Shown: piece after piece, positions 5,436 to 62,353 of the stretch
How the letters are laid out: every line of letters starts with the position of its first letter
Numbering within the stretch: position 1 is the first letter of the stretch
Virus record (IMG/VR): IMGVR_UViG_3300031669_000007
Coordinates: 1 to 64,000 of that record
Reading direction: 5' to 3' (one strand)
Source: a virus
DNA length: 64,000 nt
Notes under the pieces: generated by a model
What the model saw: the letters and a program-made list of their open reading frames with translations, nothing else
What the model was told of the DNA's origin: nothing
Databases searched by the model: none
Position numbers and translations under genes: made by a program

Positions 5436-6071
5436 TTAAATCAGTGCGTGAATTTGTTTTGCCTTCTCTAAAACAATCTTAGAGTATTCTCCTGAACTTG
5501 CTGTGCCGTTGTAACAAGCTAACGCTCGAGACATATTGTGATGCTTTTGTCGTAAACATTCTCTTAAAATACTTGCTGCAAGAGTTGAATTGGTGTATGG
5601 ATCATATATGTTTTTAGTTGAGATTTCATCTTCTCTCAACAATAGAAAAACTCTACCTACATGTGGCTTTGTCATAATTTGAAAGAACCCAAGTTCTCCC
5701 TGCGAGCCCAATGCATATTGTTCAAAGTTAGATTCGTGTTTAGCAACTGCCAACTCAATCTCAATTGGTATTCCATACTTCCATGAATTTTCCATAATTG
5801 CATCAGCTAATCTATTTGCAACACTGTCGCTGATATTTGGTCTAACACTTTTGATATAATGAACAATCCGTTGTTGTCTTTTGGCCATTGGCGAAAAAGA
5901 TAACGATCTTGATGGTTGGATCTGCGATGCTTCTGCTGGTGGTATTGCTGCTTTGAGCAATACATTTATTGATACTCCAAATATCAATAAAAATGAAACT
6001 ATTACTACCTTAATCATTGGCACGAAACCTATCTTTGGAACGTAAACCAGTCGTCTTGGTATTTTAGTCAT
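5436..6071 (-). CDS. Membrane-anchored lytic transglycosylase (SLT fold)
   Basis: A 211-residue enzyme predicted to cleave peptidoglycan glycan strands. A basic N-terminus is followed by one hydrophobic helix (residues about 20-40), so the catalytic domain is probably periplasmic. The C-terminal half shows SLT-family motifs: A-V-A-K-H-E-S-N-F with the catalytic Glu, then G-E-L-G-F-F-Q-I and A-L-A-C-Y-N-G. It is preceded by an early-type promoter and a GATAAATA element, so it may be made early and late. It differs from the signal-peptide transglycosylase at 25954-26490. Confidence 0.8.
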   Translation of the reverse strand: MTKIPRRLVYVPKIGFVPMIKVVIVSFLLIFGVSINVLLKAAIPPAEASQIQPSRSLSFSPMAKRQQRIVHYIKSVRPNISDSVANRLADAIMENSWKYGIPIEIELAVAKHESNFEQYALGSQGELGFFQIMTKPHVGRVFLLLREDEISTKNIYDPYTNSTLAASILRECLRQKHHNMSRALACYNGTASSGEYSKIVLEKAKQIHALI

Positions 6072-6892: not shown

Positions 6893-7133
6893 GACCACTT
6901 TAACAAACAGAGAGTTATGTTTTTTTCGGCGCACCCTTTACAATTTGTATTGCGGGATAATCAATATCACCAGCAAAGTCTGCTCGGTAAAAGCCATCTA
7001 AGTTTACATACTTTTCAATATCACATTCTTTTGCCCACTTAAAGAATTCCTCTTTCTCTTTCTCAGTAGTAAAATCCTTGAGTTCAAGTCCAGTTTGTCC
7101 TTCACTTAAAGTAAGCGTGTTAATAATTTTCAT
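6889..7133 (-). pseudogene. Tail-family gene with tail out of frame (A7 run)
   Basis: From ATG at 7133 the frame stops at 6915 with I-V-K-G-A-P-K-K-T, lacking the family tail. Shifting by one base in the run of seven A gives K-N-I-T-L-C-L-L-K-W-S and a TGA at 6889-6891 that overlaps the next ATG, exactly the usual arrangement. The body has F-F-K-W-A-K-E-C-D where relatives have the W-C-E helix. It may be a -1 frameshift on the A7 run, a decayed gene, or a one-base homopolymer error. Confidence 0.65.
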
Positions 7134-7354
7134 GACCACCTCAACATAAAGAGCATAAGATCTTGTTCACTTGTAAAATCAATATATTCAGTTTTCTCAA
7201 TATTAATTGCTCGCCATTCTAATAATAGCTTAGAGATGATATCATTATCTACCATCTTATGCCCGAGACCCTCGTAGTAATCAACAAAGTTGTCCCACCA
7301 ACCATTGAACTCAAGACTTGCTCCACCATCCTCATATACAGAAATTCGTATCAT
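7130..7354 (-). CDS. Tail-family small protein (LFMLRWS)
   Basis: Start ATG at 7354 (MIRISVYEDGG), overlapping the upstream stop. Shares W-W-x-N-F-V-D-Y-Y near residue 22 and the tail F-T-S-E-Q-D-L-M-L-F-M-L-R-W-S with the next two genes; the three are recent tandem copies. The codons for L-R-W-S and stop (TTGAGGTGGTCATGA) also give the ribosome-binding site and start of the downstream gene. Confidence 0.75.
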   Translation of the reverse strand: MIRISVYEDGGASLEFNGWWDNFVDYYEGLGHKMVDNDIISKLLLEWRAINIEKTEYIDFTSEQDLMLFMLRWS

Positions 7355-7572
7355 GCCCACCTCAATAAAAACAGCGTGACCTCTTCTTCAGTGTTGAAAC
7401 CAATATAGGGACTGTTTTCGACGTTGATTATTCCATATTTCCCCAACGTCTCGGTCATGCCCTCATTTGTTACCATGTCAAACCCTTTTCCTCTATGGTA
7501 GTCAACGAAGTTAGTCCACCATCTATTAAACTGCCTAACACCAGTATTGTCACATACAGTCATCTTAATCAT
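7351..7572 (-). CDS. Tail-family small protein (LFLLRWA)
   Basis: Start ATG at 7572 (MIKMTVCDNTGV). Close relative of the flanking genes: R-W-W-T-N-F-V-D-Y-H and tail F-N-T-E-E-E-V-T-L-F-L-L-R-W-A. Ends TTGAGGTGGGCATGA, again joining the tail codons, a Shine-Dalgarno and the next ATG. Confidence 0.75.
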   Translation of the reverse strand: MIKMTVCDNTGVRQFNRWWTNFVDYHRGKGFDMVTNEGMTETLGKYGIINVENSPYIGFNTEEEVTLFLLRWA

Positions 7573-7790
7573 GACCACCTCAACACGAACAGTAAGTAAT
7601 CTTGCTCGGTTTTAAAACTAATGAATTCAGTTTCTTCAATGTTTGTTGCGTTCCAATCCTCTAATGCTTTGTCAAGTCGATCACCATCTAATAGAAAACT
7701 GCTTAGTTCTTCGTAGTGGGCAATAAAATTTAACCACCATCGATGATTGCTACCTATAGAATCGTAAGCAAATACAGATACCTTAATCAT
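7569..7790 (-). CDS. Tail-family small protein (LFVLRWS)
   Basis: A 73-residue protein, third of the W-W-x-N-F triplet (H-R-W-W-L-N-F-I-A-H-Y). Tail F-K-T-E-Q-D-Y-L-L-F-V-L-R-W-S. ATGA overlaps at its 3' end. Confidence 0.75.
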   Translation of the reverse strand: MIKVSVFAYDSIGSNHRWWLNFIAHYEELSSFLLDGDRLDKALEDWNATNIEETEFISFKTEQDYLLFVLRWS

Positions 7791-8050
7791 TTATTCCACC
7801 TCAACAAAAACAGCATAGCATCTTTTTCTTCTTTAAACATCCAAGTCAACGGAGTCACTGTAGACATTGTATTTAGGGATGTGGTTGTTGGATGCTTGTG
7901 GAATTCATAGACCACGTTTCTCTTATACCATACATCTCTCTCATAGCCAAATATTTCTTCGCACCATTCTTCGCAGGGTCGCCACTGTAGATTTATATCG
8001 GGCACGTTGTGATAAATCTCATACCACCCATTAACAAGTTCATGTTTCAT
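7787..8050 (-). CDS. Tail-family small protein (LFLLRWNK)
   Basis: An 87-residue protein with C-E-E-W-C-E-E-I-F-G, a central W-Y-K-R, and tail F-K-E-E-K-D-A-M-L-F-L-L-R-W-N-K. Its start overlaps the preceding gene by 11 bases. Its end reads TTGAGGTGGAATAAATGA. Confidence 0.75.
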   Translation of the reverse strand: MKHELVNGWYEIYHNVPDINLQWRPCEEWCEEIFGYERDVWYKRNVVYEFHKHPTTTSLNTMSTVTPLTWMFKEEKDAMLFLLRWNK

Positions 8051-8486: not shown

Positions 8487-8729
8487 TTAAAAATCCTCTA
8501 TCAAAGTATCCGGCCACTTCATCAACATGATTACTATTAACTTTTCATCAACCCACAGACTATCGCCGCGGTTCTTTGGTTCTATCCAAAGATCCCTGTC
8601 TTGAGTCGTAATCCAATCATACACTTCATTAGAGGCACTGATTAGTTGGAACATATATTCTGTTCCTACACGTTGCTTTGGATTCGTGTTGTTTTCTCTA
8701 ACCCAATGTTTTATTATGGCTATGACCAT
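8487..8729 (-). CDS. Tail-family divergent member (MLMKWPD)
   Basis: An 80-residue protein with V-Y-D-W-I-T-T-Q-D-R-D-L-W and tail D-E-K-L-I-V-I-M-L-M-K-W-P-D followed by TLIEDF. The extension past the Trp resembles the Y-P-E-S-I extension at 25517-25777. Confidence 0.6.
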   Translation of the reverse strand: MVIAIIKHWVRENNTNPKQRVGTEYMFQLISASNEVYDWITTQDRDLWIEPKNRGDSLWVDEKLIVIMLMKWPDTLIEDF

Positions 8730-8941
8730 TTCAATAGATACATCATATAATCAGATTCTGATGAAAGCCATACTTCTGGTCGACCACCCCAGTCATGTTT
8801 AATCTGCCAACCACCGTTGCATGATGCTCTAACCCAAGACATCGATTCTACATGATGATGAGTATTACAATCACATTTATATTTCGGATCAAATACGGAT
8901 ATGTTCGTTGTAGTCGCTGATTGTGTAAAGAAAGAAGTCAT
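8720..8941 (-). CDS. Tail-family small protein (MYLLKWS)
   Basis: A 73-residue protein with a His/Cys-rich N-terminal half (KCDCNTHHHVESMSW), a Gly/Trp-rich middle and tail L-S-S-E-S-D-Y-M-M-Y-L-L-K-W-S. AAGGTGG, encoding R-W of the preceding gene, lies seven bases before its ATG. Confidence 0.65.
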   Translation of the reverse strand: MTSFFTQSATTTNISVFDPKYKCDCNTHHHVESMSWVRASCNGGWQIKHDWGGRPEVWLSSESDYMMYLLKWS

Positions 8942-8942
8942 A

Positions 8943-9167
8943 CTATAACCACCTTAACGAAAACAACATTGCATCTTTCTTGCAGTTAAATGAATATAAT
9001 CTTCCAGGTAAGTCCTCGGACCACAGTAAATGACAATCCCCAAATGTTTTATCGCACCAATCAACTATTTCAATAGAGTTTTCTTTGCGTTCGCGAAATC
9101 TAATTTCGAAGCGAAGACTGCCACGACGTGTTTCCGCCCTCATCCTAGCTTTCTCTAGTGTTGACAT
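8943..9167 (-). CDS. Tail-family small protein (LFSLRWL)
   Basis: Start at 9167 (MSTLEKARMRAETRRG), overlapping the upstream TAA (TAATG). Very basic N-terminus, I-V-D-W-C-D-K-T-F-G, then L-L-W-S-E-D and tail F-N-C-K-K-D-A-M-L-F-S-L-R-W-L. Confidence 0.7.
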   Translation of the reverse strand: MSTLEKARMRAETRRGSLRFEIRFRERKENSIEIVDWCDKTFGDCHLLWSEDLPGRLYSFNCKKDAMLFSLRWL

Positions 9168-9427
9168 TAATGTGATCCCCACTTCAATAAGAACATTGAA
9201 GCATCTTCTTCGTTAAAAAATACAAAATATTCCTTCTTGTTTTCTCTTACGATAATGATACCCTGCGTAAATAGCCAATCCTCAAATTTCTTCATACTGC
9301 CATGATGGCGACTGCTCCCGCCTTGGAAGTAGAATCTTTTCTTCTCTTCTATTTCTAATCCCAGAATCACTTGATTGTGATATTTAAGAAGTTTCTGAAA
9401 ATATGGAAATGCGTGAATTTTTATCAT
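9167..9427 (-). CDS. Tail-family small protein (MFLLKWG)
   Basis: Start at 9427 (MIKIHAFPYFQK) with ATGA overlap. Lys/Gln-rich centre, a W near residue 58 (FEDWLFTQGI) and tail F-F-N-E-E-D-A-S-M-F-L-L-K-W-G-S-H. Confidence 0.7.
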   Translation of the reverse strand: MIKIHAFPYFQKLLKYHNQVILGLEIEEKKRFYFQGGSSRHHGSMKKFEDWLFTQGIIIVRENKKEYFVFFNEEDASMFLLKWGSH

Positions 9428-9732
9428 TGACACTTCCACTTCAAAAGAAAGTAAGAGATAAGAGACTCGTGTTTTTTACTAAGTTTTATCTCAAGAATCG
9501 AAAGATTCTTTTTGTTTAACCTATAATCCCAATCAATGCCACGAATACCGGCTATTTCCATTAGGTCATCGCGATACTGAATATATGACATCAAGTCATC
9601 ATCCGAATATAAAACACAAATAGTCTTTGTTCTGGTCGTTAGCCACCATATACGTTGTTTAAGAGAACCATAGTCAACTAAGTATTTCTTAGTTTCGTTG
9701 TAAAAAATTGATATAGTTGATAACTTAGGCAT
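9424..9732 (-). CDS. Tail-family long member (YFLLKW)
   Basis: A 102-residue protein, first gene of the array. It keeps a G-I-D-W-D-Y Trp and the tail K-H-E-S-L-I-S-Y-F-L-L-K-W-K-C-Q. It directly follows the RNase H gene and the promoter at 10440-10467, so the array is likely expressed early as one message. Confidence 0.6.
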   Translation of the reverse strand: MPKLSTISIFYNETKKYLVDYGSLKQRIWWLTTRTKTICVLYSDDDLMSYIQYRDDLMEIAGIRGIDWDYRLNKKNLSILEIKLSKKHESLISYFLLKWKCQ

Positions 9733-24589: not shown

Positions 24590-24789
24590 TTTAATTTAAA
24601 CACCACTGCTTCTTCGTCAGAATAAAACCTAAATTTAACACGGTCAGGTTGTTGTCCGTCTGCCCACCCAACCATCCACGATACGCCATTGTATTCCATT
24701 TTGCCAAATACATTTTCGCACCATTCATAGATTTTAATCATATGCTCGTATTCTTCGTTTGTCCCACGCTCAACAATAAATTCTGTCAT
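24580..24789 (-). CDS. Tail-family small protein (VFKLKWM)
   Basis: Start at 24789 (MTEFIVERGTNEEYEH), in an ATGA overlap, with GGGGAGG upstream encoded by the preceding W-G-G-I codons. I-Y-E-W-C-E-N-V-F-G, then V-S-W-M-V-G-W and tail F-Y-S-D-E-E-A-V-V-F-K-L-K-W-M. Confidence 0.75.
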   Translation of the reverse strand: MTEFIVERGTNEEYEHMIKIYEWCENVFGKMEYNGVSWMVGWADGQQPDRVKFRFYSDEEAVVFKLKWM

Positions 24790-25043
24790 AATTTTATACC
24801 TCCCCAACGCAATGCAAATAATGTTGCATCGTGTCCATTGACAAAGCAGTAATACAAAATATTATTCTCATCTTCGTCTTCGTCTATTTTCCACTCATCA
24901 TATGACGTGGCTTCTGTTGTCCATAACTCATGTCTCTCGCCAATGTTTTCTTCGCACCATATAATTCGGACATGGGTGCGATCGGCAAAACGAACGCTTG
25001 GCACACCTACCCTAAAGATCATTTCTTTTTCCGATTTTGCCAT
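24786..25043 (-). CDS. Tail-family small protein (LFALRWGG)
   Basis: Start at 25043 (MAKSEKEMIFRVGVPS) in a TAATG overlap. I-I-W-C-E-E-N-I-G, W-T-T-E-A, an acidic middle (DEDEDENN) and tail V-N-G-H-D-A-T-L-F-A-L-R-W-G-G. Closest to the next gene. Confidence 0.75.
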   Translation of the reverse strand: MAKSEKEMIFRVGVPSVRFADRTHVRIIWCEENIGERHELWTTEATSYDEWKIDEDEDENNILYYCFVNGHDATLFALRWGGIKL

Positions 25044-25279
25044 TATACAGTTACGTTGGCCCACCGCAATGCAAATAACATTGCATCTTGTTCATTGAGA
25101 AACATGAAAAGAGTTTTCCGATCGTTTCCTTCTCCAAGAGGTAACTTAATTGTCCACGATTTATATATTTCGCCGACGTGTTCTTCGCACCATTCAACTC
25201 TTATCATCGAGTTATTTGAAAAAATAAATTTTGGCACACTTACCGCAAACTTTAGATCTTGCATGTCTTGTCGGTCCAT
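25043..25279 (-). CDS. Tail-family small protein (LFALRWAN)
   Basis: A 78-residue protein with AAAGG before the ATG at 25279. R-V-E-W-C-E-E-H-V-G, S-W-T-I-K-L and tail F-L-N-E-Q-D-A-M-L-F-A-L-R-W-A-N. With 24786-25043 it forms a tandem pair of close copies. Confidence 0.75.
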   Translation of the reverse strand: MDRQDMQDLKFAVSVPKFIFSNNSMIRVEWCEEHVGEIYKSWTIKLPLGEGNDRKTLFMFLNEQDAMLFALRWANVTV

Positions 25280-57191: not shown

Positions 57192-57472
57192 GGCGGAAAC
57201 CTTATTAAGAGCATAGTATAGGCAGAGTCCTCTACATCTATTCCGGCAATATGCCCAGGAAAAAGTCCGCCCGGATCGTTAAGAACTGTTATCTGCCAGG
57301 TATCTTTAAGCCAGGCACGAAACTCTTCGTATTCATTGGCATGACCAATTCCCTTCCACGGGGATTCTTCTCTAAGTGCTCGAAGTATCTTAGCCCAATG
57401 AATAGGCGAAGTGCCTCTAATTGGAAAATATCCGGCATAATCAACGATGCGATCAGTGAAAGATACTATCAT
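57188..57472 (-). CDS. Tail-family protein, MLLIRFPP type
   Basis: Start at 57472 (MIVSFTDRIVDYAGYF) by ATGA overlap; the long upstream extension is a shadow of the 57469-57684 gene. F-R-A-W-L-K-D-T-W-Q-I helix, end V-E-D-S-A-Y-T-M-L-L-I-R-F-P-P. Confidence 0.65.
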   Translation of the reverse strand: MIVSFTDRIVDYAGYFPIRGTSPIHWAKILRALREESPWKGIGHANEYEEFRAWLKDTWQITVLNDPGGLFPGHIAGIDVEDSAYTMLLIRFPP

Positions 57473-57684
57473 TCTCCGAACCTCAACATAAAAAACATTG
57501 CGTCCTTCTCCTCTTTGAAAGCATAAATGTGATACTTTAAGAAAACTACCGTCCAATCTTCGTTTTTCTTCCCCATACAAGTATTAAGCCAAGCTAAACG
57601 ATTACAGTAGTCTTGATAGGTATGCTTCTTATTAGCTCTAATAATATAGGGAAACCTGGCGTTATAGGGTAATTTTTCAATCAT
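57469..57684 (-). CDS. Tail-family protein, MFFMLRFGE type
   Basis: A 71-residue protein: C-N-R-L-A-W-L-N-T-C-M-G-K-K-N-E-D-W and tail F-K-E-E-K-D-A-M-F-F-M-L-R-F-G-E. Its end TTGAGGTTCGGAGAATGA provides GGAG to the next gene. Confidence 0.7.
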   Translation of the reverse strand: MIEKLPYNARFPYIIRANKKHTYQDYCNRLAWLNTCMGKKNEDWTVVFLKYHIYAFKEEKDAMFFMLRFGE

Positions 57685-59274: not shown

Positions 59275-59484
59275 TTATCTTCCCCACCGCAGTGAGAACA
59301 ACGTCGCATCTATATCGTTAAAAAATCTAATGCCTGATCTTCCTGTCCCATCGTTTGCTTCCCCTATAGTCCAACGCTGTTCATCTGGAAGCGGAGGATT
59401 AGGCATGTTTTCCTCTAACCACAAGCCTATATCTATCTCGGACTTACCCTTTGTTGCCGAGAAGTAAAATTCTAAATCAACCAT
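59275..59484 (-). CDS. Tail-family small protein (LFSLRWGR)
   Basis: Start at 59484 (MVDLEFYFSATKGKSE), TAATG overlap. G-L-W-L-E-E-N-M, R-W-T-I-G-E and tail F-N-D-I-D-A-T-L-F-S-L-R-W-G-R. Confidence 0.75.
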   Translation of the reverse strand: MVDLEFYFSATKGKSEIDIGLWLEENMPNPPLPDEQRWTIGEANDGTGRSGIRFFNDIDATLFSLRWGR

Positions 59485-59717
59485 TATGCCCACTTCAATG
59501 CGAACAATATCGCATCCTTCTCGTTGTCGAAGCACCACACTACTTCTCCTTCTTTGACACCTGCGTATGTAATCATACTGCTATCGTCATCATCAAGACA
59601 AGTATTTTCTTCGCACCACTTTGCCATCTCTTCCATTTTTGCATTTCGAGACTTTCCCCAAATTGAGTCTAATATAGTTGATACTCTGTGGTCACCAAAC
59701 AACGAATCTTTCTTCAT
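59484..59717 (-). CDS. Tail-family small protein (LFALKWA)
   Basis: A 77-residue protein: M-A-K-W-C-E-E-N-T-C, E-V-V-W and tail F-D-N-E-K-D-A-I-L-F-A-L-K-W-A. GGAG before its ATG is encoded by the W-S codons that end the preceding gene. Confidence 0.75.
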   Translation of the reverse strand: MKKDSLFGDHRVSTILDSIWGKSRNAKMEEMAKWCEENTCLDDDDSSMITYAGVKEGEVVWCFDNEKDAILFALKWA

Positions 59718-59718
59718 G

Positions 59719-59940
59719 CTAACTCCACTTCAATAAAAACAAGGTAAACTGTTCTTCATCCATATATGCAGTCCACAGGGTTGATCCTTTGTATATTTCT
59801 ACGGTTAGACCAAATTTTCTATCGAGTAATCTCTTAATTTCTTCTATGCTTATTAACGCAGTAGAAAACTTGTTTGCGTTCATCTCAGATCTAAAGCAAT
59901 CATAAAACTTTGGATAATCCTGGAAATCAAACTGTATCAT
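59719..59940 (-). CDS. Tail-family small protein (LFLLKWS)
   Basis: Start at 59940 (MIQFDFQDYPKFYD). L-D-R-K-F-G-L-T-V helix-strand, L-W-T-A-Y and tail M-D-E-E-Q-F-T-L-F-L-L-K-W-S. AAGGTGG upstream encodes L-R-W of the preceding gene. Confidence 0.75.
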   Translation of the reverse strand: MIQFDFQDYPKFYDCFRSEMNANKFSTALISIEEIKRLLDRKFGLTVEIYKGSTLWTAYMDEEQFTLFLLKWS

Positions 59941-60167
59941 TTCCACCTTAATAAGAAAAGCATCAAGTCTTGTTCATTAACAAAATAATATGTATCACCA
60001 TTTACTATATACCAATCTGACTCTTTAAGATTGTCTTTCAACCAATCATATCTATTTTCGAAAAGATCGCTGTTCGTTTTTCCATATCTATTTTCGAAAA
60101 GATCGCTGTTCGTTTTTCCATGCAGCCTTGTCTTAAAGGGCCAAATCTTTTTATTCAATTCTCTCAT
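59937..60167 (-). CDS. Tail-family small protein with internal 12-residue repeat
   Basis: Start at 60167 (MRELNKKIWPFKTRL). Contains the exact tandem G-K-T-N-S-D-L-F-E-N-R-Y twice, then Y-D-W-L-K-D-N-L-K-E-S-D-W and tail V-N-E-Q-D-L-M-L-F-L-L-R-W-K. The repeat is a recent 36-bp in-frame duplication. Confidence 0.75.
   Translation of the reverse strand: MRELNKKIWPFKTRLHGKTNSDLFENRYGKTNSDLFENRYDWLKDNLKESDWYIVNGDTYYFVNEQDLMLFLLRWK
60047..60118. repeat. Tandem 36-bp direct repeat, two exact copies
   Basis: Two identical 36-base units (60047-60082 and 60083-60118) inside a tail-family gene. The length is a multiple of three and keeps the frame. Confidence 0.9.
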
Positions 60168-60406
60168 AGCCAACGCAATGTAAACATTGTAGCATGAATT
60201 GGGTCACGAAAGTAGAAGATCATGCCGTCTCTATACCACATTTTTTCACCGAAAGTCTCCGTGCAATAGGGTTCATATTTGAATCCCTCTGACATAAATG
60301 CTCTTGTTGTCATCTCAACTCGAACCCAAAAGATTTCTTTCCACAATAGATGCAACGGCATACTTGTTATTGTTGTTAATTTATCGAACCAAGTCTCTTT
60401 TCTCAT
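60164..60406 (-). CDS. Tail-family small protein (MFTLRWL)
   Basis: An 80-residue protein: basic N-terminus (MRKETWFDKLTTITS), Y-C-T-E-T-F-G-E-K-M-W-Y and tail F-R-D-P-I-H-A-T-M-F-T-L-R-W-L. Confidence 0.7.
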   Translation of the reverse strand: MRKETWFDKLTTITSMPLHLLWKEIFWVRVEMTTRAFMSEGFKYEPYCTETFGEKMWYRDGMIFYFRDPIHATMFTLRWL

Positions 60407-60407
60407 G

Positions 60408-60611
60408 TCAGCTACACTGTAAGATAAACAATGTTAGATCTTCTTCTGTATTAAATATTATCGAAAATACCAAGTCTTCTGCGACTTCAACCACATAGTT
60501 TCCTGGATATTGAGATTTGATGTAACTTTCAACTTTTTCTTGTAGTCTTGTATCTATGGGTTCTCCTCGAAATCGAGTAGAAACGTCTTTATATAAATTA
60601 TCTAATATCAT
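60408..60611 (-). CDS. Tail-family protein, YPGNYVV type (LFILQCS)
   Basis: Start at 60611 (MILDNLYKDVSTRFRG) because it overlaps the TGA that ends the preceding gene once its frame is restored. Y-P-G-N-Y-V-V-E-V and end F-N-T-E-E-D-L-T-L-F-I-L-Q-C-S, with Cys in place of the final Trp. Confidence 0.7.
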   Translation of the reverse strand: MILDNLYKDVSTRFRGEPIDTRLQEKVESYIKSQYPGNYVVEVAEDLVFSIIFNTEEDLTLFILQCS

Positions 60612-60807
60612 TGCCATCTCAACCTAAAAGCAATGCGTCGGGTTCGTATTTGAACCAAAAAAGAACAGAGGTTTGGAACGTGATTGGGTTTGTGACTCCT
60701 GCAGTTTTAAACCAATTATCCTCGCCTACTCCGTGATTTAACCACTCAACTATTTTTTCTCTGTTTTCCGTAACGCAGTCGGATGACAGTTGAACCTTAT
60801 ATTCCAT
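60608..60807 (-). pseudogene. Tail-family gene with tail out of frame (T4 run)
   Basis: From ATG at 60807 (MEYKVQLSSDCVTENR) the frame has I-V-E-W-L-N-H-G-V-G, N-W-F-K and reaches Y-E-P-D-A-L-L-L-G then stops at 60619. A -1 shift in CTTTTA gives D-A-L-L-F-R-L-R-W-Q and a TGA at 60608-60610 that overlaps the next ATG. One missing T explains everything. Decay, a sequencing error or -1 slippage cannot be told apart here. Confidence 0.7.
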
Positions 60808-61018
60808 TGTTACCCATCCACCGTAACGCGAAAATAGTTGCGTCCTCTGACTGACTAAACCAGAACCGTGTTCGACCAACTGAGTATGATCCATCGCTCT
60901 CATATTCCTCGCACCATCTCTGCATTTTACCAAACTCTTCGGGCATCAAGTGTTCAGCTATAGTCACTCTATACCAAGATCCTATCTGTTCCATATTTAA
61001 TGCGCCAGAATAGTTCAT
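60797..61018 (-). CDS. Tail-family small protein (IFALRWMG)
   Basis: A 73-residue protein (MNYSGALNMEQIGSWY): M-Q-R-W-C-E-E-Y-E, R-F-W-F-S-Q and tail S-E-D-A-T-I-F-A-L-R-W-M-G. Overlaps neighbours at both ends. Confidence 0.75.
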   Translation of the reverse strand: MNYSGALNMEQIGSWYRVTIAEHLMPEEFGKMQRWCEEYESDGSYSVGRTRFWFSQSEDATIFALRWMGNNGI

Positions 61019-61245
61019 CTGCTGTGCCTTAATAAGAATAAAGTAGCATCTTCGTCATTTTGAAAATATACGCTAGAATAGCTAGATGTGTATTCAAGAT
61101 TGCCTTGATATTTTATATTGAACCAAGAAATCACAAATGAATATACCTCGGCGTTAGAAAAATCTTTACCCGCAACAATATCACATTCTCGACTGAATTC
61201 ATTTATAATTTTGTTAAGATCAAAGTTAGTAATTTTTGTCCCCAT
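61015..61245 (-). CDS. Tail-family small protein (LFLLRHSR)
   Basis: Start at 61245 (MGTKITNFDLNKIINE), just after the stop of the 61247-61414 gene; the longer upstream frame is a shadow of that gene. Tail F-Q-N-D-E-D-A-T-L-F-L-L-R-H-S-R, with His for the final Trp. Confidence 0.7.
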   Translation of the reverse strand: MGTKITNFDLNKIINEFSRECDIVAGKDFSNAEVYSFVISWFNIKYQGNLEYTSSYSSVYFQNDEDATLFLLRHSR

Positions 61246-61246
61246 C

Positions 61247-61414
61247 TTATGACCACCGTAATAAAAATAAAGTCGCGCCTTGTTCACTCTCAAAATACCA
61301 ATCTTTACCACAAGCAATAAATGTATCTCTCCCGAAGTTTTTTATTGCCCATTGATATGCTGTATGCCAGGATGTATTATCCCACAATGACAAACCAGAA
61401 ACAACGTGTATCAT
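61247..61414 (-). CDS. Shortest tail-family protein, 55 residues (LFLLRWS)
   Basis: A 55-residue protein from ATG at 61414 (MIHVVSGLSLWDNTSW): A-Y-Q-W-A-I-K-N-F-G-R-D, D-W-Y and tail F-E-S-E-Q-G-A-T-L-F-L-L-R-W-S. It begins M-I-H-V like the plus-strand copy at 53742. Confidence 0.7.
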   Translation of the reverse strand: MIHVVSGLSLWDNTSWHTAYQWAIKNFGRDTFIACGKDWYFESEQGATLFLLRWS

Positions 61415-61415
61415 A

Positions 61416-61658
61416 CTAACTCCATTTCAGTAAGAACATAACAAGATCTGAGTCAGTTGCAAATTCCAACGATACTGTTTCTATCCAGGATGTACCGATT
61501 CCTTCATGCAGCACTCTATTTACCTTTACACTGTTTTCTTTTTCCATATATTTAATGTGGTCGTCTGGCACAAGGTGATAATACTGATGTCCGCCCTCAT
61601 TTCTATAAGCGTTTCGAAACGGAGTAGATATCTTTTCGATGGGGATTACTATGCTCAT
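61416..61658 (-). CDS. Tail-family small protein (MFLLKWS)
   Basis: An 80-residue protein (MSIVIPIEKISTPFRN), first of the array: H-I-K-Y-M-E-K-E-N, S-W-I-E-T-V and tail F-A-T-D-S-D-L-V-M-F-L-L-K-W-S. Its ATG overlaps the zinc-finger gene stop. Confidence 0.7.
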   Translation of the reverse strand: MSIVIPIEKISTPFRNAYRNEGGHQYYHLVPDDHIKYMEKENSVKVNRVLHEGIGTSWIETVSLEFATDSDLVMFLLKWS

Positions 61659-62353
61659 ACTTTGGCCTCTATCAACACAGATTTAATAAACTCGGTGTCG
61701 GCAACATAGTCTTTGAATTTGCGATTCCAAAAGTCTGGGTCAATAAATCTGAAGATCAATGTGACTTGTTCTTCGTTTAGTCCAGATAAGAATGCTATGC
61801 CGCTATCGCAGTTATATAGAATCCACGGAGAGATACGACCATTGACTATCATATTGCATATCTTATTGGGTGCGCCTTCTCGGAAGATATTGTTAAACTG
61901 TTTGTCTGTATCGTCTGCCCAGTTCTGCATCTCAGTGAATGAACGCTCTAATGCATCATTGGGATGTTCTTTACGCAGATAGTCGTGTAAGTATTCGTCG
62001 TAGAACGATTCCTTCGTCCATTGATCTAACTTTTTGTTTTCTTTAATGATCCACGCAATAAACATAGGCACATTGATTGCGCGTATTTGCACCAAGTATT
62101 GACCAAACTTAACAAATGCAGAATAGTATGGCGAATCTACAAAGTCGGCATAGGTTTTGGTCTTTGCTGATCCCTGTGTCATCTCATAGAATTTGAGATA
62201 TGCTTGCATACCAAGTCTTACTCCTGATTCGTTCTCTTGCTGATATCTGCGTTTCTTTTCACACATATGAACAGACAGCGTAGAGAGTTTTCTAAAACTC
62301 TTCTCGCAGTATTTACAAGTATATTTTTCTACTGTTGCTTCAATATTTGCCAT
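61655..62353 (-). CDS. C2H2-type zinc-finger phage protein
   Basis: A 232-residue protein. Residues 12-33 carry C-K-Y-C-E-K-S-F-R-K...S-V-H-M-C, a C2H2/C2HC finger. The rest (G-M-Q-A-Y-L-K-F-Y-E-M-T-Q-G; A-F-V-K-F-G; R-I-S-P-W-I-L-Y-N-C) matches a family I recall as conserved in marine T4-like phages. Function unknown; DNA or RNA binding likely. Confidence 0.7.
   Translation of the reverse strand: MANIEATVEKYTCKYCEKSFRKLSTLSVHMCEKKRRYQQENESGVRLGMQAYLKFYEMTQGSAKTKTYADFVDSPYYSAFVKFGQYLVQIRAINVPMFIAWIIKENKKLDQWTKESFYDEYLHDYLRKEHPNDALERSFTEMQNWADDTDKQFNNIFREGAPNKICNMIVNGRISPWILYNCDSGIAFLSGLNEEQVTLIFRFIDPDFWNRKFKDYVADTEFIKSVLIEAKV

What the first reader, a model, noticed from the sequence alone, without database searches (positions are those of the whole stretch)
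7130..7790. The L-R-W codons double as the next gene's Shine-Dalgarno
In the arrays the tail is encoded as TTG-AGG-TGG-TCA-TGA or close variants, so AGGTGG or GAGG sits 4-9 bases before the next ATG, which overlaps the stop. Seen at 7133, 7354, 7572, 7790, 8941, 59717 (GGAG from TGG-AGT), 59940, 57472 and 24789. Part of the tail's conservation may thus come from translational coupling. The architecture lets a new cassette be inserted with its translation signal carried by the upstream gene's protein end.
Basis: partly seen in the sequence, partly recalled or inferred. Interest (0 to 1): 0.75.

Follow-up and report, generated by a model that had tools for sequence, protein, structure and literature searches.

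The report
Protein tail codons double as ribosome signal
In many environmental phages, the last codons of a family of small proteins of unknown function also form the ribosome-landing signal of the next gene, which may let these genes be strung together and swapped while the string stays translatable.

Summary
I tested it on 924 non-redundant tail genes (664 with Arg) from 372 IMG/VR stretches plus the window's contig, found with patterns that left the Arg codon free. Arg is AGG in 383 of 553 tails with a start codon within 16 nt after the Trp, and in 18 of 96 otherwise; background is 8.4%. AGG reaches 77% when ATG follows TGG by 2 or 5 nt and falls to 17% at 9-16 nt. With the protein held fixed, coupled Arg tails pair far better with the 16S tail than synonymous recodings (-9.6 vs -5.0 kcal/mol); other tails do not. 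Strong codon bias is confined to Leu and Arg. So Shine-Dalgarno selection on these codons is well supported. The peptide is mostly conserved for another reason: it persists uncoupled and is predicted to be a domain's C-terminal helix; LKW tails lack a strong SD. Gene neighbours turn over, and similarity breaks at the ATGA junction.

The parts
7787..8050 (-). tail gene (87 aa, ...DAMLFLLRWNK); AlphaFold2 model has the tail as C-terminal helix 75-85
7796..7804 (-). TTG-AGG-TGG (L-R-W) acting as SD for the ATG at 7790
   Evidence: duplex -10.3 kcal/mol
7569..7790 (-). tail gene (73 aa, ...LFVLRWS), ATG at 7790 in an ATGA overlap
7575..7583 (-). TTG-AGG-TGG as SD for the ATG at 7572
   Evidence: -14.1
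7351..7572 (-). tail gene (...LFLLRWA), ATG at 7572 in an ATGA overlap
7357..7365 (-). TTG-AGG-TGG as SD for the ATG at 7354
   Evidence: -10.4
7130..7354 (-). tail gene (...LFMLRWS), ATG at 7354 in an ATGA overlap
7136..7144 (-). TTG-AGG-TGG as SD for the ATG at 7133
   Evidence: -14.1
6915..7133 (-). next gene, no LRW tail, ATG at 7133 overlapping the stop of the gene above
8949..8957 (-). TTA-AGG-TGG as SD for the ATG at 8941 (longer spacing, TAG stop between)
   Evidence: -10.2
59943..59951 (-). TTA-AGG-TGG as SD for the ATG at 59940
   Evidence: -7.7
59723..59726 (-). GGAG from TGG-AGT of an LKWS tail, before the ATG at 59717
   Evidence: read by eye, no energy computed
57474..57477 (-). 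GGAG in an LRF-GE tail, before the ATG at 57472
   Evidence: read by eye, no energy computed
24799..24803 (-). GGAGG from LRWGG (CGT-TGG-GGA-GGT), before the ATG at 24789
   Evidence: -12.8
60164..60433 (-). counter-example: LRWL tail with CGT at an ATGA overlap, almost no pairing (-1.5)

Best explanation
The tail is first a protein feature: the C-terminal helix (D-A-x-x-F-x-L-R-W) of a small alpha/beta domain shared by a large, fast-diverging family of phage proteins. Because Trp is always TGG and mostly sits next to last, the codon before it lies just where a Shine-Dalgarno core is wanted when the next gene begins at the ATGA or TAATG overlap. Selection for translating the next gene therefore biases the synonymous choices to TTG-AGG (GAGG, 5 or 8 nt before ATG) and mildly favours Arg over Lys. 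A ribosome that ends the upstream gene, or a new one bound at the same site, then starts the next gene. Since each cassette runs from ATG to tail, it uses the SD of the gene before it and supplies one for the gene after it, so cassettes can be exchanged without breaking the chain. Shown: codon bias beyond the protein, its dependence on spacing, and neighbour turnover at the junction. Inferred: reinitiation, the effect on expression, and the benefit for cassette exchange.
For: AGG in 297 of 447 coupled against 11 of 77 other Arg tails (p 5e-18). One per protein cluster and class (start within 10 nt): example draw 201 of 279 vs 12 of 82, median odds ratio 13.7 over 50 draws. Within-locus odds ratio 12.8 over 50 loci that hold both kinds. 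Spacing: 77% at 2 nt (228 of 298) and 5 nt (77 of 100), 12 of 26 at 7, 10 of 24 at 8, 5 of 29 at 9-16 nt. Duplex energy beats synonymous recoding in coupled Arg tails only. AGA is not enriched (78 of 553; interior 25.9%, background 15.4%), nor is CGG (30 of 553), which would make the same in-frame GTG. Strong codon bias sits in the Leu and Arg codons. Lys tails lean to AAG when coupled (59 of 121 vs 10 of 45, p = 0.002), the Lys codon that pairs better (-7.5 vs -4.1). Tail genes of different loci at 70% identity or more: 78 pairs without and 37 with a related next gene; DNA identity drops from about 0.8 to 0.3 just past the ATGA (66 pairs).
Against: Coupled LKW tails almost never have a strong SD (1% of 121; 31% pass the weak cut-off), and their energy does not beat recoding (77 tails). 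170 of 553 coupled Arg tails are not AGG, so a strong SD is not essential at these junctions. Tails without a close start still use AGG about twice as often as background (18 of 96; 11 observed vs 4.1 expected in non-seeds). Ser after Trp, which would lengthen the pairing, is not associated with AGG (97 of 225 vs 53 of 122, p = 1). In the 35 pairs with the same next gene behind different tail genes, both contexts passed the weak SD cut-off in 19, one in 12, none in 4. Codons at -9 (Asp) and -5 (Phe) also deviate in coupled genes (chi2/df 13.3 and 8.6). Among homologous pairs that differ in coupling, AGG only in the coupled one 38, only in the other 17, not independent. No expression data; host unknown.
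Confidence: 0.85

Rival explanations
1. The shared DNA at the junction is mainly a boundary homology for recombination between cassettes, and the SD match is secondary.
For: Neighbour turnover with similarity ending at the ATGA; mild bias also at the -9 Asp, -6 Leu, -5 Phe and -4 codons in coupled genes.
Against: Strong bias is limited to the two codons that form the SD and depends on spacing to the start. A cut-off at gene borders is also expected if only exchanges that keep genes whole survive.
Confidence: 0.15
2. AGG is chosen as a rare codon that slows the ribosome before the stop, not as an SD.
For: AGG is the rarest Arg codon in background ORFs (8.4%).
Against: AGA shows no enrichment; the neighbouring Leu codon is biased to TTG, which completes GAGG; the effect weakens sharply when no start follows within range.
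Confidence: 0.03
3. The peptide L-R-W is itself a by-product of the SD, with no protein function.
For: Arg over Lys is somewhat commoner when coupled. Five of seven profile relatives in Atu_ph07 were read; none ends in LRW, and one of them (L476 21224-21556) overlaps its next gene by 4 nt with GGAG from other codons.
Against: LRW/LKW is kept in 54 of 88 domain hits without a close next start, often with CGN codons; Lys tails keep Trp without a strong SD; the motif reaches back through F and DA, outside the SD; the model places it in a helix in blocks of mean pLDDT 96 and 89.
Confidence: 0.05
4. It is nothing but the ordinary presence of an SD in the end of an upstream gene, as at many overlapping gene pairs.
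For: In 20 of 24 prokaryote groups about half or more of overlapping pairs carry an SD inside the upstream gene (PMC6728339, passages read). Arg codons among the last three before non-tail ATGA overlaps are also AGG more often than background (18 of 59).
Against: Mean duplex energy at mechanically called non-tail ATGA overlaps is near the recoded expectation (-4.92 vs -4.61, 249 pairs; many may not be real genes, so this control is weak), against -9.6 in coupled Arg tails. Here the SD sits at one fixed place in a conserved peptide across hundreds of diverged proteins.
Confidence: 0.3

Closest known systems
Translational coupling by termination-reinitiation at ATGA/TGATG overlaps (Huber et al. 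2019, PMC6728339; review PMC12548453)
   Same: 4-nt and 1-nt overlaps dominate (441 and 105 of 751 first ATG starts); [quoted passage not shown]
   Different: Here one conserved peptide tail supplies the SD at a fixed distance throughout a family of often tandem phage genes, with gene order reshuffled. The passages I read do not describe such a tail.
Codon and stop-codon use shaped by the next gene's SD (Palleja et al. 2009, PMC2784483; Eyre-Walker 1996 as cited there)
   Same: Coding ends adapt to carry the SD of the next gene
   Different: There a genome-wide statistical trend and stop-codon effect (passages read); here a single Leu-Arg-Trp site with up to 77% AGG
Boundary or linker sequences at module borders of lambdoid phages (recalled; one search found nothing relevant)
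   Same: Short shared sequence at exchange borders
   Different: Here the shared stretch is explained by protein tail plus SD; a recombination role was not shown
Agrobacterium phage Atu_ph07 small proteins
   Same: Weak fold matches (BFVD, best E 0.23) and profile relatives of the domain (7 hits, best E 5e-5)
   Different: The five of seven read end in LRY, ITF or others, not LRW; the pattern TTYNNNYTNMGNTGG is no commoner there than its reversed control (13 vs 11)

Membership tests
Overlapping gene pairs translated by termination-reinitiation | co-directed genes with overlapping stop and start (ATGA, TAATG, TGATG) | tested here: met
   start minus stop of -4 in 441 and -1 in 105 of 751 tail genes with an ATG-started ORF of 40+ codons within 60 nt
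Overlapping gene pairs translated by termination-reinitiation | downstream translation depends on upstream translation | not testable with these tools
   needs a reporter or profiling
Shine-Dalgarno site | pairing with the 16S 3' end beyond what the protein requires | tested here: met
   -9.61 observed vs -4.97 recoded, 447 coupled Arg tails, p 1e-62; coupled Lys tails (77) no excess
Shine-Dalgarno site | fixed window of spacing to the start codon | tested here: met
   AGG 77% at 2 and 5 nt after TGG, 5 of 29 at 9-16 nt
Shine-Dalgarno site | host 16S rRNA carries the matching CCUCC | not tested
   host not identified
Described phage protein family | match to a PHROG or Pfam model | tested here: not met
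   10 window proteins: best E 0.031 (PHROGs) and 0.049 (Pfam); 70 representatives: 2 PHROGs matched by one member each at E 0.0037 and 0.0084, best Pfam 0.013
Recombination boundary sequence | conservation beyond what protein and SD require | tested here: inconclusive
   mild bias at codons -9, -6, -5 and -4; strong bias only in Leu and Arg codons

The most novel reading that the evidence does not exclude
The LRW tail is a standard connector: a structural helix whose codons are kept as a ribosome-loading site, so that any cassette running from ATG to tail can be plugged behind any other and be translated at once. Large phages would use it to hold and reshuffle a fast-evolving stock of small, perhaps host-directed, proteins, and the connector would itself influence which residues (Arg over Lys) the protein end may carry.
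Probability: 0.4. Interest if true: 0.8.

Novelty: new variant of a known kind. Interest (0 to 1): 0.62.

Why it matters
It is a clear natural case of one short stretch read two ways, as a predicted folded protein end and as a ribosome site, with the two constraints separable in the data. It also suggests how phages could add and swap small genes without losing translation, and it marks a large family of small phage proteins, not matched in PHROGs or Pfam by the members tried, that can be found by its ending.

Tried and rejected
Rare-codon pausing (AGA not enriched) and selection for the in-frame GTG inside AGGTGG (CGG not enriched) were rejected on counts. Extended pairing through Ser (TCA) after Trp: no association. 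Relatives of the window's own array trio: the scan of viral contigs gave 91 pattern stretches, none confirmed by tblastn; profile comparison with the wider family aligns only the last 28-30 columns, and its fold prediction failed (pLDDT 46.9), so I do not claim that the trio shares the whole domain. tblastn of two full-length members and of a 21-residue consensus against named phages: no match; the last has little power. PDB fold search: no clear match (best Foldseek E 1.9; best VIA Z 6.7 to DCoH, in the range that the tool calls common). Profile search of BcepSauron: no match; of Atu_ph07: seven, of which I read five. A pattern scan of bacterial genomes gave 3 stretches, of which one (L380) looks like a phage contig in a MAG; with a loose tail pattern L378 gave no ORF and L379 two without resemblance. 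Non-tail overlapping ORFs as control are weak because the ORFs are mechanical. 15 of the first 119 loci held no tail ORF by my pattern. Papers: listings only (none found); passages read of PMC6728339, PMC12548453 and PMC2784483, and a term search of PMC6102473 without hits. No title listed there was on such a tail; most subscription papers are not held.

Full report
What was checked. The window is part of a 92,630-base virus contig. Its primase-helicase stretch matches, at about 65% identity over a quarter of the query, large Pseudomonas phages such as PA5oct. On the minus strand it holds runs of small ORFs ending in D-A-x-x-F-x-L-R/K-W plus a few residues. All nine coordinates in the finding were located; six carry TTG/TTA-AGG-TGG shortly before the next ATG and three have GGAG or GGAGG from other codons. 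The window also has tails without the signal, which the finding did not list (CGN or Lys codons).

A wider sample. I scanned IMG/VR with patterns that fix parts of DA..LF and TGG but leave the Arg codon as MGN, or the residue as NRN. Tail genes were called mechanically; the reversed sequences gave 0 and 4 (any residue before Trp) hits. After removing repeats of the last 40 residues there were 630 tails with Arg or Lys in 292 sequences, and added 924 tails with any residue (664 Arg, 171 Lys) in 373 sequences, the window's contig included; 270 of these still hold a tail after that removal.

Codon choice depends on the next gene. 'Coupled' means a start codon of an ORF of 40 or more codons within 16 nt after TGG. 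Of 447 coupled Arg tails 297 use AGG; of 77 others, 11; 10 near sequence ends were set aside. In the larger set it is 383 of 553 and 18 of 96, with 15 set aside. Background AGG is 8.4% of 35,634 Arg codons in long ORFs and 9.6% of 2,653 in the interior of the tail genes, so the uncoupled tails are still about twofold above background. Taking one gene per protein cluster and class leaves the odds ratio near 14, and within loci it is 12.8 over 50 loci. AGG is 77% at 2 nt (298 tails) and 5 nt (100 tails) between TGG and ATG, 46% at 7 (26), 42% at 8 (24), and 17% at 9-16 nt (29), as expected for an SD that must lie close to the start. The rows '17-60' (25 of 63) and 'no ATG' (36 of 98) of that table include genes coupled to GTG or TTG starts, so they are not a clean zero.

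Protein held fixed. Recoding the tail synonymously with each locus's own codon use gives -4.97 kcal/mol against the 16S tail; the real coupled Arg tails have -9.61 (447 genes, p 1e-62), while uncoupled (32) and intermediate (45) Arg tails and all classes of Lys tails (77, 6 and 10) do not differ significantly from recoding. In non-seed coupled tails (372) the codon bias sits in the Arg/Lys codon (chi2/df 206) and the Leu codon before it (47); other positions reach at most 13.3, and in the 76 non-seed tails without a close start all are under 3. AGA and CGG are not enriched, which argues against rare-codon pausing and against selection for the GTG inside AGGTGG. Lys tails lean to AAG when coupled (59 of 121 against 10 of 45, p = 0.002), which could reflect better pairing or avoidance of the ATG inside AAATGG.

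The peptide has its own reason. With a profile built without the LRW slot, [LIMV][RK]W fills the slot in 417 of 582 coupled and 54 of 88 other non-seed hits (p = 0.06). Trp is next to last in uncoupled tails too (28 of 42). The AlphaFold2 model of the window protein 7787-8050 (91-row alignment, mean pLDDT 81.7, weak around residues 51-60) is a small beta-beta-alpha-beta-beta-alpha domain with the tail as its last helix. The amino acid is mildly influenced: R:K is 278:94 in coupled and 43:33 in other non-seed tails (p = 0.002). Coupled Lys tails rarely have a strong SD (1% of 121), so the junction may work without one, in line with the variable SD dependence reported in PMC6728339 (passages read).

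Cassettes. Among pairs of coupled tail genes from different loci at 70% identity or more, the next gene has no blastp match in 78 and one in 37. In 66 such pairs DNA identity is about 0.8 up to the ATGA and about 0.3 after it; in 35 pairs with the same next gene behind different tail genes it rises at the ATG. In those 35, both junctions passed the weak SD cut-off in 19, one in 12, none in 4; their 51 distinct junctions use AGG in 31. Pairs are not independent, some loci may belong to one contig, and no set of genes without tails was used as control, so the turnover is shown but a special recombination role is not.

Family and novelty. The members tried match no described PHROG or Pfam family with confidence. 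The best predicted viral structures are unnamed proteins of uncultured phages (best E 3e-5); Atu_ph07 proteins follow with weak scores (from E 0.23). Five of seven Atu_ph07 profile relatives were read: none ends in LRW, and one lies at a 4-nt overlap with GGAG from other codons. An SD within the upstream gene and coupling at ATGA overlaps are well known (PMC6728339, PMC2784483, PMC12548453; passages read). What is new here, as far as my searches show, is a conserved protein end that carries the SD at a fixed place through a large shuffled family.

Noticed in passing
L380 (DLXM01000070.1), about 1-2615: A contig binned into a Bacteroidetes MAG carries 12 ORFs ending in LRW- or IKW-like tails, 7 of them with AGG before TGG; it looks like a phage fragment, and the SD use sits oddly with a Bacteroidetes host, a group reported to use little SD (PMC6728339).
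   Followed up: partly
window 8720-9732, 59484-61682; wider sample: Lys-tailed members in the same arrays mostly have close starts but rarely a strong SD. AAA-TGG always contains an ATG in frame with the usual next start; AAG is relatively commoner when coupled.
   Followed up: partly
L476 21224-21556 and 22523-22831, L477 9346-9771 (Atu_ph07): Profile relatives of the domain in a cultured 490-kb phage, without LRW; a cultured starting point for function.
   Followed up: partly
window 25043-25279 and L364: An IMG/VR locus holds a gene whose last 40 residues are identical to the window's tail gene at 25043, so a close relative of this phage is in the collection.
   Followed up: no
window 5436-6071: A 211-aa protein matching PHROG endolysin and lytic tail families (E 2.5e-12) lies downstream of the array.
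   Followed up: no
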